DNA from: Daucus carota subsp. sativus
Taxonomy: Eukaryota; Streptophyta; Magnoliopsida; Apiales; Apiaceae
DNA: 64,000 bases
Direction: 5' to 3'
Assembly: GCF_001625215.2 (NCBI RefSeq)
Contig: NC_030387.2
Location: 38,277,606-38,341,605, forward strand
The notes beneath the pieces are model-generated. The model was not told the DNA's origin and searched no databases. It worked only from the letters and a program-made list of their open reading frames with translations. Shown in pieces: positions 6,292-57,017 of the stretch. The stretch's first letter is position 1; the number at the start of each line of letters is the position of its first letter. The position numbers and the translations under genes were made by a program.

Positions 6292-6300
6292 TATTAAAAA

Positions 6301-6539
6301 GGGAAATCTACAAAACTACCTACCTTTTCTTTAATTATTTACAAAAATACTACCTTCCAGAATTATTTTTAAAAATACCTTTTCATAAAATTGTTTTTTC
6401 AAAAATACTGTTTGCAACTTTTGCAACCTCATTTGCAACTAGCCAGCCGTGTTGCAACCTCTTTTGCAACTTCATCTGCAACTGAATTTCTGATTTCAAG
6501 TTCCAGTTTTCAAATGTCGTTTTCGACCTCATTTTCGGA

Positions 6540-6579
<40 letters not shown>

Positions 6580-7236
6580 TCCGAAAATGAGGTCGAAAAC
6601 GACATTTGAAAACTGGAACTTGAAATCAGGATTTGTAATTGCATATATGGTTGCATATGGTTGTATTCAGTTGCATATGGTTGCATTCAGTTGATTCTAT
6701 TGTAATCTAATGGCCCCGCCAGGGGCACACCATACATCTGTTGTTACTTACAGTTTTCAGTTGCATTTAGTTGCAACTGAGGTTGCAAAAGTTGCAACTG
6801 CAGTTGCAACCTCATTTGCAACTTTTGCAACCTCATTTGCAACTTTTGCAACCTCATTTGCAACTTACAGTTTTCAGTTGAACTAGTTGCAATTGCAGTT
6901 GCAACAGTTGCAACAGTTGCAACTTTCCATTTTTATTTGCAACTTTTGCAACCTCATTTGCAACTTTTGCAACCTCATTTGCAACTTTTACGGCTGCGCC
7001 GCCCAAGGTTGCAACAGTTGCAACAGTTGCAACTTTCCATTTTTATTTGCAACTTTTGCAACCTCATTTGCAACTTTTACGGCTGCGCCGCCCAAGGTTG
7101 CAAATGAGGTTGCAAAAGTTGCAAATCGTATTTTTGAAAAAAAAATTTTATGAAAAGGTATTTTTAAAAACAATGAAAAAGATGGTAGTATTTTTAAAAA
7201 AATGATTTTACAGATGGGTATTTTTAAAAAGATCCC
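6301..7236. mobile_element. Non-autonomous Mutator-like element, copy 1
   Basis: A 936-bp element with imperfect terminal inverted repeats of about 100 bp (GGGAAATCTACAAAACTACC at the left; the right end reads back GGGATCTTTTTAAAAATACC). It is flanked by a perfect 9-bp target duplication TATTAAAAA (6292-6300 and 7237-7245), the size expected for Mutator-like elements. The interior has many copies of a TTGCAACTTTTGCAACCTCA motif and a large perfect palindrome at 6490-6629. No transposase is present. Open frames inside are repeat translations, not genes. A second copy lies at 54951-57008. Confidence 0.8.
6490..6629. repeat. Perfect palindrome with (TA)15 centre
   Basis: Two 55-bp arms (6490-6544 and 6575-6629) are exact reverse complements, separated by a 30-bp (TA)n spacer. 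On either strand it could fold into a long hairpin, or into a cruciform in duplex DNA. It sits inside Mutator-like copy 1. Confidence 0.9.
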
Positions 7237-7245
7237 TATTAAAAA

Positions 7246-25488: not shown

Positions 25489-25489
<1 letters not shown>
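24681..25489 (+). mobile_element. Helitron-like element (3' end clear, 5' end uncertain)
   Basis: The 3' terminus has hairpin CCCGTGCCTTGCACGGG (25462-25478, 7-bp stem) then CTATAAG and CTAG (25486-25489) followed by T. The hairpin stem is the same as in the Helitron ending at 21602. The 5' end is placed only roughly, near TATACTTATATATAATAAGC; it lacks the usual TC start. Confidence 0.5.

Positions 25490-25561
<72 letters not shown>
25490..25561. repeat. (TA)n microsatellite
   Basis: About 72 bp of pure TA dinucleotide directly after the Helitron 3' end. Predicted (IY)n peptides here are artefacts. Confidence 0.95.
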
Positions 25562-26649
<1,088 letters not shown>

Positions 26650-27199
26650 GAACAGATGCTTAACTCTCCTATGCATACTAGTATAATCATATCCGATTAC
26701 TATGTAAAACTGAAACATGTACGGCTAATAATTTAAATATTTCATAATAAATTTTTTGATATATACAGGTTAAGAAACTTTACCTCTGTATGTCCCTTTG
26801 GATGTTTCAGTATGTGTGTTAGGTTGTTCTGGTAGTAGTATGCAGGGTCTTTGTAATAAACTAATAGGTTATAGTAATGGCTCCTATGTTTGGTCGTTGA
26901 TGTAGCTACTCTCTTCTAACAGATGGTTTTAATAAATAAATTTTGCTTATAAAAAAATATATTCGAGGTGCTGAGCTATGCATATATATAATATTTAAAA
27001 TATTTTATTTTTTATTCGGGTTGGTTTGGTTCGGCCAAAAAAAACTCAAGCCCGTAACCAACCCAATTAAATCGGGTTTATATTTTTTTAAACCAAATAC
27101 ATATCGGGTTCAAAATATTCGGGTTGGTTCGGTCGAAAAGTGATCGGTTCGGATTGGTTTGGTCGGTTTTACCAAATCATGTACACCCCTAATCACACC

Positions 27200-54941: not shown

Positions 54942-55196
54942 TATTTTTTTGGGAAATCTACAAAACTACCTACCTTTTCTTTTATTGTTTTCAAAAATAC
55001 TACCTTCCAGAATTATTTTTAAAAATACCTTTTCATAAATTTTTTTTTTCAAAAATACTATTTGCAACTTTTGCAACCTCATTTGCAACTACAGGCGGCG
55101 CAGCCGTGTTTCAACCTCTTTTGCAACTTCATATGCAGCTGAATTCCTGATTTCAAGTTCCAGTTTTCAAATGTCATTTTCGACCTCATTTTCGGA

Positions 55197-55201
<5 letters not shown>

Positions 55202-55265
<64 letters not shown>
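55202..55265. repeat. (TA)n microsatellite at left edge of the captured DNA
   Basis: About 64 bp of TA repeats directly after the left palindrome arm, the counterpart of the copy-1 spacer. Confidence 0.9.
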
Positions 55266-55267
<2 letters not shown>

Positions 55268-55896
55268 ATTGATATTCATCATATTATCATCCTTTTATCA
55301 TGCATCTGGACGTTTAACATTAACCAGTATAGTCTTCACTCAGCTAATACTTTCTATGGCTTGTTCCTAAAGTTTAGGAGGTAGAATCCGTGCACAACTG
55401 TAATTCTGGGAGAGTTGCCGTGCCTTAGACTTGTTTTGGGTAAACTGGACCCGTGTTGCTGTCCTAAGGCTCCTTAAAGGAGGTCTATCAATACTCTAAG
55501 GTACCTGATTCACTGGTACCTAAGCTTATCTTCATGGTTGCTGATCATAAAACCTCTTCTACTGGCTACACTTTTCCTCTAACAGGCTGTGGGACCTTAT
55601 AGCTATCCTATAACCAATCATTATCTATTGACTGATCATATGGCTATTTTAATGGGAAAACCCTATCCAAAGCTATATTACCTATCCATTCTCAACCTCT
55701 AAGTCGAATGGGCCTTGACCTTACCCACTTAAATTTTGGGGACAAAGGGAAAGTATGAAAGATGGTTTTTAAGGAATTTTATCCCTAATAAAATTAATTC
55801 CCTTTACCTCAAGTTGTTTAATATAGACGACAAGAGGGAAGGGAAGTTACAAAATCTTACGCTTTGCTCTCAAATTTTATGATGGGAGGCGATCAT
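55266..55896. other. Captured DNA of unknown, possibly organellar, origin
   Basis: About 630 bp between the left (TA)n and the psaA fragment, absent from copy 1. Base composition is more balanced than the surrounding DNA. It contains purine blocks (GACGACAAGAGGGAAGGGAAG at about 55826). It has no long open frame and no tRNA or rRNA that I can identify. A mitochondrial source is possible but unproven. Confidence 0.45.
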
Positions 55897-56317
55897 AAAT
55901 AGAGATCCACCAATCCACATGTGATGTGTGAACAATGACAGTTGTGTACCATAGTCAGTAGCTAGATACGGATAAGGCGGCATAGAATACATATGGTGAG
56001 CTACAATAATGGTTAAAGAGCCTAACATAGCTAGGTTAAGAGATAATTGAGCATGCCATGATGTTGTTAGGATTTCATATAGGCCTTTATGGCCCTGACC
56101 CGTAAATGGACCTTTATGAGCTTCTAAAATATCTTTTAGGCCATGACCAATGCCCCAGTTAGTTTTATACATATGACCCGCTATCAGGAAAAGAATTGCA
56201 ATAGCTAAATGATGGTGTGCGATATCGGTCAGCCATAGACCCCCAGTTACTGGATCTAATCCTCCACGAAAAGTAAGAAAGTCTGAATATTTTGACCAAT
56301 CCAAGGTAAAAAAGGGA

Positions 56318-56319
<2 letters not shown>
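55897..56319 (-). pseudogene. psaA: Plastid psaA fragment in the nucleus (NUPT)
   Basis: The minus strand encodes an internal part of the photosystem I P700 apoprotein A1: [79 protein letters not shown]. The match begins right at the (TA)n boundary and ends at about 55897, where the frame turns into unrelated [12 protein letters not shown] and stops. About 140 of roughly 750 residues remain, with no start or regulatory sequence. The frame is still open, so transfer is probably not very old. It is a plastid-to-nucleus DNA insertion, possibly through a mitochondrial intermediate. Confidence 0.9.

Positions 56320-56352
<33 letters not shown>
56320..56352. repeat. (TA)n microsatellite at right edge of the captured DNA
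   Basis: About 33 bp of TA repeats between the psaA fragment and the right palindrome arm. Confidence 0.9.
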
Positions 56353-56357
<5 letters not shown>

Positions 56358-57017
56358 TCCGAAAATGAGGTCGAAAATGACATTTGAAAACTGGAACTTG
56401 AAATCAGGATTTGTAATTGCATATATGGTTGTATTCAGTTGCATATGGTAGCATTCAGTTGATTCTATTGTAATCTAATGGCCCCGCCAGGGGCACACCA
56501 TACATCTGTTGTTACTTACAGTTTTCAGTTGCATTTAGTTGCAACTGAGGTTGCAAATGAAGTTTCAAAAGTTGCAACTGCAGTTGCAACCTCATTTGCA
56601 ACTTTTGCAACCTCATTTACAACTATATATAGTTTTCAGTTGCATTTAGTTGCAACTGAGGTTGCAAATGAAGTTGCAACTGCATTTGCAAAAGTTGCAA
56701 CTGCATTTGCAACCTCATTTGCAACTTTTGCAACTTACAGTTTTCAGTTGAACTAGTTGCAATTGCAGTTGCAACAGTTGCAACTTTCCATTTTTATTTG
56801 CAACTTTTGCAACCTCATTTGCAACTTTTGCAACCTCATTTGCAACTTTTACGGCTGCGCCGCCCAAGGTTGCAAATGAGGTTGCAAAAGTTGCAAATCG
56901 TATTTTTGAAGAAAAAAATTTATGAAAAGGTATTTTTAAAAACAATGAAAAAGATGGTAGTATTTTTAAAAAAATAATTTTACAGATAGGTATTTTTAAA
57001 AAGATCCCTATTTTTTT

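What the first reader, a model, noticed from the sequence alone, without database searches (positions are those of the whole stretch)
54951..57008. Foreign DNA captured exactly at the centre of a transposon palindrome
Two copies of one Mutator-like element share 55-bp palindrome arms. In copy 1 the arms are split only by a 30-bp (TA)n. In copy 2 the (TA)n is split by about 1.05 kb that includes a plastid psaA piece. The junctions lie inside the TA repeat. The simplest reading is a double-strand break at an extruded (TA)n cruciform, healed by copying or ligating organellar DNA. The pair gives a before/after comparison of a fragile site.
Basis: partly seen in the sequence, partly recalled or inferred. 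Interest (0 to 1): 0.75.

Follow-up and report, generated by a model that had tools for sequence, protein, structure and literature searches.

The report
Foreign DNA in transposon palindrome centre
A plant (carrot-like) jumping gene carries a mirror-image DNA stretch whose TA-rich middle is often found trimmed or filled; in this copy it holds a piece of chromosome 5 joined to a piece of chloroplast DNA, and sister copies show other outcomes at the same spot.

Summary
Two Mutator-like copies lie in the window, each within a perfect 9-bp target duplication. Copy 1 has 54-bp palindrome arms around 32 bp of (TA)n. Copy 2 has 56-bp arms, and its (TA)n is split by 1,053 bp: about 640 bp 99% identical to a place on chromosome 5, joined to about 415 bp of plastid psaA. 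The three joints share 4, 2 and 1 bp, and the insert has no terminal inverted repeats, so it looks like end-joining filler, not transposition.

Among 83 copies with an exact 66-base right arm, 50 centres are symmetric, 11 hold inserts with TA-targeting-element ends (MuTAnT-like), 2 hold non-element captures (copy 2; a copia gag fragment), 12 have left-arm deletions, 5 small trims and 3 are other. No large insert was seen elsewhere in the element (30 of 30 right halves; 49 of 50 left halves, one end truncated or lost). So the centre is a hotspot, mostly through targeted transposition; captures are rare.

Cruciform extrusion is not shown: (TA)n breakage by other means, or excision of a TA-targeting element, fits as well. 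The parts are known (filler DNA, NUPTs, MuTAnT, PATRRs); the replicated series is the value.

The parts
54942..54950 (+). left target-site duplication of copy 2 (TATTTTTTT)
   Evidence: identical to 57009-57017
54951..57008 (+). copy 2 of a non-autonomous Mutator-like element, with the captured DNA inside
   Evidence: ends GGGAAATCTA / AAAAGATCCC; inverted repeats 54962-55107 / 56851-56997 84% alike; 9-bp duplication
55145..55200 (+). left palindrome arm, 56 bp perfect
55201..55265 (+). left part of the (TA)n centre, 65 bp
55266..55904 (-). captured piece 1, matching C5:19726165-19726805
   Evidence: 99% identity; a 2.2-kb query around the C5 place matches only itself, copy 2 and one weak short stretch
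55903..56319 (-). captured piece 2, antisense fragment of plastid psaA
   Evidence: open frame and PsaA match; differs at 7 positions (one at the join) from the majority of other nuclear psaA pieces, 408 of 431 positions being covered by 3 or more of them
56319..56353 (+). right part of the (TA)n centre, 35 bp (its first T can also belong to psaA)
56354..56409 (+). right palindrome arm, 56 bp perfect
57009..57017 (+). right target-site duplication of copy 2
6301..7236 (+). copy 1 of the same element with unfilled centre (AT run 6544-6575); duplications 6292-6300 and 7237-7245

Best explanation
A non-autonomous Mutator-like element inserted here with a palindromic (TA)n centre. Later the centre suffered a double-strand break. 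End joining with 1-4 bp of shared sequence healed it, and two unrelated fragments served as filler: one matching chromosome 5 and one of plastid origin. Shown: element boundaries, uniqueness and mosaic make-up of the insert, junction overlaps, absence of terminal inverted repeats, and the centre as an insertion hotspot in sister copies. Inferred: that a double-strand break occurred, that it came after insertion at this site, and that fragility of the palindromic (TA)n made it.
For: The 9-bp duplication is perfect across the 2,058-bp element, so both halves belong to one insertion. Joints: TATA (4 bp) at TA|C5, AT (2 bp) at C5|psaA, T (1 bp) at psaA|TA, with source flanks read in L010, L003, L004 and L008. 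Its two ends score 7.0 in a gapped comparison, reached by 56 of 300 shuffles; the ends of four element inserts score 18-29, reached by 0 of 300 each. A second capture of the same form is L040 (C4:33596197): a copia gag fragment (PF14223, E 1.1e-18) inside (TA)n. All 40 scored genomic matches, itself included, cover its 442 bp at 98-100% (447 candidates), and its joints share AT and TA with one source copy. In the 83-copy census 33 centres are not plainly symmetric. Control: right end 560-796 bp from the arm in 30 of 30 loci, left half 218-252 bp in 49 of 50 symmetric copies. The 13 clear large inserts all lie in the TA tract, 8.3% of the sequence compared (binomial 9e-15; 2 captures alone 0.007).
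Against: Captures proper are 2 of 83, and copy 2 is the case that prompted the search; without it there are 12 inserts (about 1e-13 on the same share) but only one capture (0.083, not significant). The other capture, L040, has no matching target duplication (5 of 9 flank bases agree), so its two halves may have been rearranged. Of the 13 inserts, 11 are TA-targeted transpositions that need no prior breakage. The length of sequence compared was taken from assumed means (650 and 235 bp). The right-half loci were picked for a good match to the arm and the next 130 bp; the left-half control used symmetric copies only. No (TA)n tracts without palindrome arms were measured, so the role of the palindrome is untested. 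Centre states may be inherited among related copies. No reads were available.
Confidence: 0.7

Rival explanations
1. A TA-targeting element (MuTAnT-like) first sat in the centre and then excised; the excision break was healed with filler DNA. The palindrome plays no part.
For: 11 of 83 centres hold inserts whose ends abut TA; the 3' end of each scores 12.5 or more with some other terminus in the set (its own other end included) against a shuffled maximum of 11. MuTAnT, a Mutator-like family targeting TA microsatellites, is described in Medicago (PMC4486113, abstract and first of four parts read).
Against: No excision footprint is visible at the joints of copy 2 or L040, where source sequence runs straight into TA; footprints can be absent, so this is weak. 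It does not by itself explain the arm deletions.
Confidence: 0.2
2. Pack-MULE style acquisition: the element took up the DNA at a donor site and arrived here already loaded.
For: Mutator-like elements are known to capture host fragments (passages read: PMC4858842; PMC6446971). The perfect duplication encloses the whole loaded element.
Against: No second copy of the loaded element was found; the full insert matches one place, with 23 of 23 candidates scored.
Confidence: 0.15
3. Assembly chimera at a hard-to-sequence TA palindrome.
For: TA palindromes are hard to read, and no reads were available here. The second capture, L040, lacks a target duplication.
Against: Copy 2 has perfect matching duplications on both sides and the window has no N. 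If the genome is carrot DH1 v3, it was assembled from PacBio and Nanopore reads (PMC10581907, passages read).
Confidence: 0.06
4. Replication-based template switching (slippage out of the hairpin and copying of ectopic templates) without a double-strand break.
For: Same junction signature: short overlaps and mosaic templates.
Against: Nothing here tells it from end joining; plant organelle filler is usually ascribed to end joining with 1-7 bp overlaps (PMC7037861, passages read).
Confidence: 0.2

Closest known systems
NUPT / organelle DNA used as filler in break repair in plants
   Same: plastid fragment, short overlaps at joints, mosaic with other DNA
   Different: the acceptor is the TA centre of a repeated transposon palindrome, so many unfilled sister sites exist; the other part of the mosaic matches nuclear chromosome 5
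Pack-MULE (Mutator-like elements carrying host fragments)
   Same: non-autonomous element with long inverted repeats and a 9-bp duplication carrying foreign DNA
   Different: a single loaded copy was found, with the DNA placed in the TA tract of the palindrome; no sign that the loaded form moved
MuTAnT elements (TA-microsatellite-targeting Mutator-like elements)
   Same: elements with such ends occupy the same TA centre in sister copies
   Different: the copy 2 insert lacks terminal inverted repeats and was found once
Human palindromic AT-rich repeats (PATRR)
   Same: AT-rich centre, breakage at the centre, symmetric and asymmetrically deleted alleles (PMC4255720, passages read)
   Different: short arms (54-56 bp) with (TA)n, dispersed in hundreds of transposon copies; filler instead of translocation

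Membership tests
Mutator-like element (non-autonomous) | 8-11 bp target-site duplication (range from PMC6446971) | tested here: met
   of 31 copies examined both ends were found in 28; 9 of 9 bases agree in 24 and 8 or more in 27; mispaired flanks reach 8 in 2.2%. L040 is the exception (5 of 9)
Mutator-like element (non-autonomous) | long terminal inverted repeats | tested here: met
   84% over 148 bp in copy 2, starting 11 bp inside the ends
Mutator-like element (non-autonomous) | mobilised by a mudrA-type transposase | not tested
   no autonomous partner was sought
Pack-MULE | host fragment carried between Mutator-like ends | tested here: met
   chromosome 5 and psaA pieces inside the element
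Pack-MULE | loaded element has transposed or multiplied | tested here: inconclusive
   one loaded copy found
NUPT filler | plastid-derived sequence | tested here: met
   PsaA match; the plastid genome itself could not be compared: the first 10 kb of contig C11 and half of the first 10 kb of C10 read N
NUPT filler | joints with 0-7 bp overlap | tested here: met
   4, 2 and 1 bp
TA-targeting transposon insertion (MuTAnT-like) | terminal inverted repeats abutting TA | tested here: not met
   ends of the copy 2 insert score 7.0, reached by 56 of 300 shuffles; L051, L057, L058 and L141 score 18-29, reached by 0 of 300. An earlier ungapped test did not separate them (6 of 30 against 7-19 of 30)
Cruciform-induced break (PATRR-like) | breakage depends on the palindrome, not on (TA)n alone | not tested
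   no arm-less (TA)n control set was collected

The most novel reading that the evidence does not exclude
The TA-filled palindrome is the element's own acquisition port: its recurrent breakage is how this Mutator-like family picks up foreign DNA, which would give one concrete route for how Pack-MULE-like elements are loaded.
Probability: 0.15. Interest if true: 0.75.

Novelty: new variant of a known kind. Interest (0 to 1): 0.5.

Why it matters
Hundreds of similar palindromes with (TA)n centres (716 arm matches) scattered through one genome form a natural replicate experiment. They show how often a TA palindrome stays intact, loses an arm, receives a TA-targeting transposon, or is filled with stray DNA, with the unfilled state known from sister copies. 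That makes rates of palindrome breakage and of organelle-DNA capture measurable in a plant, and it bears on how Mutator-like elements acquire host DNA.

Tried and rejected
Rejected: that the copy 2 insert is a terminal-repeat transposon (the ungapped test could not decide); that it is ancestral; that the chromosome 5 piece is a repeat. A mitochondrial origin of that piece was not excluded: half of the first 10 kb of contig C10 and all of the first 10 kb of C11 read N. One search also printed a base-by-base comparison of this piece that was out of register and is disregarded; the identity used is BLAST's. Rfam gave no match at gathering score in the window and four loci. The literature searches listed no title or abstract start describing capture in the palindrome of a Mutator-like element. 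Only listings were seen, plus passages of seven papers and part of one. Age was not estimated beyond the 0.93% difference from the chromosome 5 place.

L127 (C4:49539533) has unrelated DNA beside the right arm without a TA tract and is counted in no class of inserts. The classes within the 33 non-symmetric copies were set by me from the printouts. Deletion lengths are against the better-scoring of two reference left halves that differ by 31 bp, so some could be longer by that much. Loci L057-L087 come from a second, overlapping sample (65 copies with 0-mismatch arms on C1-C3: 33 pairs with 4-106 bp between arm patterns, 2 with 396 and 949 bp, 30 single arms) and are not added to the 83. Of the 11 element-like inserts both ends were seen in 4 (L051, L057/L117, L058/L123, L141); the other 7 rest on one end, which in each case resembles another. 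In the left-half control the missing end (L038) is a truncated or replaced terminus.

Full report
What is there. The window lies at C7:38277606-38341605 of a 441-Mb plant genome in 11 contigs. Nine contigs sum to 440.7 Mb (lengths printed); the largest is 64.56 Mb. That fits carrot DH1 v3 (440.7 Mb in nine sequences, longest 64.5 Mb, N50 51.1 Mb; PMC10581907, passages read). The match is by size only.

Two copies of one element lie 48 kb apart. Each begins GGGAAATCTA, ends AAAAGATCCC, and sits in a perfect 9-bp duplication. Of 31 copies examined for duplications, both ends were found in 28; 24 agree at 9 of 9 and 27 at 8 or more. Mispaired flanks reach 8 in 2.2%. With inverted repeats 84% alike over 148 bp, this supports a non-autonomous Mutator-like element. 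The transposase was not sought.

Copy 1 has 54-bp perfect arms around 32 bp of (TA)n. Copy 2 has 56-bp arms, 65 bp of (TA)n, 1,053 bp of other DNA, then 35 bp of (TA)n.

The insert. Window 55259-55906 matches contig C5 (19726165-19726812, minus) at 99.07% over 648 bp. A 2.2-kb query around that place matches only itself, copy 2, and one weak stretch of about 72 bp on C4. The rest is antisense psaA: 143 codons without a stop, 1-141 aligned to PsaA residues 259-399. Other nuclear pieces of psaA match it at 73-100% over shorter stretches. The joints share TATA, AT and T with the neighbouring source. There are no terminal inverted repeats: score 7.0, reached by 56 of 300 shuffles, against 18-29 and 0 of 300 for four element inserts. 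The insert as a whole was found once (23 of 23 candidates scored).

Sister copies. A 26-base arm pattern occurs 716 times with up to 3 mismatches, the reversed control 0 times. As a defined sample I took every copy with an exact 66-base right arm: 34 with one variant and 49 with the other, 83 in all. Up to 620 bp inward from each were read for all 83.

The centre is symmetric in 50, with AT runs of 6-94 bp. The other 33 are: 11 inserts with element-like ends abutting TA (L032, L033, L044, L051, L112, L117, L123, L132, L138, L140, L141); 2 captures (copy 2 and L040); 12 left-arm deletions of 25-82 bp reaching the centre (L026, L035, L037, L043, L045, L090, L094, L095, L115, L116, L129, L131; L116 and L131 keep no TA tract); 5 trims of 2-16 bp (L030, L113, L122, L142, L143); one double centre (L105); one interrupted TA (L121); and one unresolved (L127).

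Because the sample requires an intact right arm, right-arm losses are not counted. The overlapping C1-C3 sample shows such losses too, for example L060, L067, L069, L071 and L076.

Control. In 30 of 30 loci (L023-L052, copy 2 among them) the right end lies 560-796 bp from the arm. In 49 of 50 symmetric copies the left half is 218-252 bp long; in the fiftieth, L038, the terminus is truncated or replaced. So no large insert was seen outside the centre. With 2,832 AT-run bases against about 31 kb of element (assumed means of 650 and 235 bp), 13 of 13 large inserts in the TA tract has binomial probability 9e-15, and 2 of 2 captures 0.007. Copy 2 was the case that prompted the test; without it the figures are about 1e-13 for 12 inserts and 0.083 for one capture, by the same share. 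So the hotspot for inserts is firm, while the excess of captures is not proven. These figures treat copies as independent and the controls as representative, which is only partly true.

The element-like inserts. The 3' end of each of the 11 scores at least 12.5 with another terminus in the set, its own other end included, against a shuffled maximum of 11. The ends of copy 2, L040 and L127 score at most 7.5. Mutator-like elements that target TA microsatellites are known (MuTAnT; PMC4486113, first of four parts read). So most large inserts at the centre are ordinary targeted transposition.

The second capture. L040 holds a fragment of copia-type gag (PF14223, E 1.1e-18) in its TA tract. All 40 scored genomic matches, itself included, cover its 442 bp at 98-100% (447 candidates). 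Its joints share AT and TA with the flanks of one source copy. This is the same form of event with a different donor. Against it: the flanks of L040 agree at only 5 of 9 bases, so this copy has no recognisable duplication and may have been rearranged.

Mechanism. The most economical account is a break in the (TA)n centre healed by end joining, sometimes with stray fragments as filler, sometimes with loss of one arm. Filler use of organelle DNA with 1-7 bp overlaps is described for plants (PMC7037861, passages read). What makes the break is open. A cruciform, a stalled fork at (TA)n, or excision of a TA-targeting element would all leave what is seen. Breakage at the centre of AT-rich palindromes, with symmetric and asymmetrically deleted alleles, is known from human PATRRs (PMC4255720, passages read).

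Assessment. The claims of an organellar insert and of a cruciform need cutting back. All ingredients are known; their combination in a large replicated family is useful.

Noticed in passing
G000:C2:39840454-39840513 and G000:C3:61015995-61016034: TA centres with symmetric interruptions, as if one arm had been copied from the other; other copies in the same list have one-sided interruptions.
   Followed up: no
window 6490-6629 and 55145-56409: The C/T variant inside the arm agrees between the two arms of each copy (copy 1 both C, copy 2 both T), which may be subfamily descent or arm-to-arm correction.
   Followed up: partly
L105 (G000:C5:32456203-32456889): A copy whose inner end shows a second TA palindrome centre, as if the centre had been duplicated.
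   Followed up: no
L127 (G000:C4:49538913-49539599): Right arm joined directly to unrelated DNA without a TA tract; either a truncation or another capture.
   Followed up: no
window 25489-25561 and 26505-26651: Long (TA)n arrays elsewhere in the window, outside this element.
   Followed up: no
L033 (G000:C6:5015881-5019076): A copy with a repeated internal part and, at its centre, an insert whose end resembles that of L123.
   Followed up: no
L040 (G000:C4:33594697-33597892): The copy with the copia capture has no matching 9-bp flanks (5 of 9), unlike the other 27 measured copies.
   Followed up: partly
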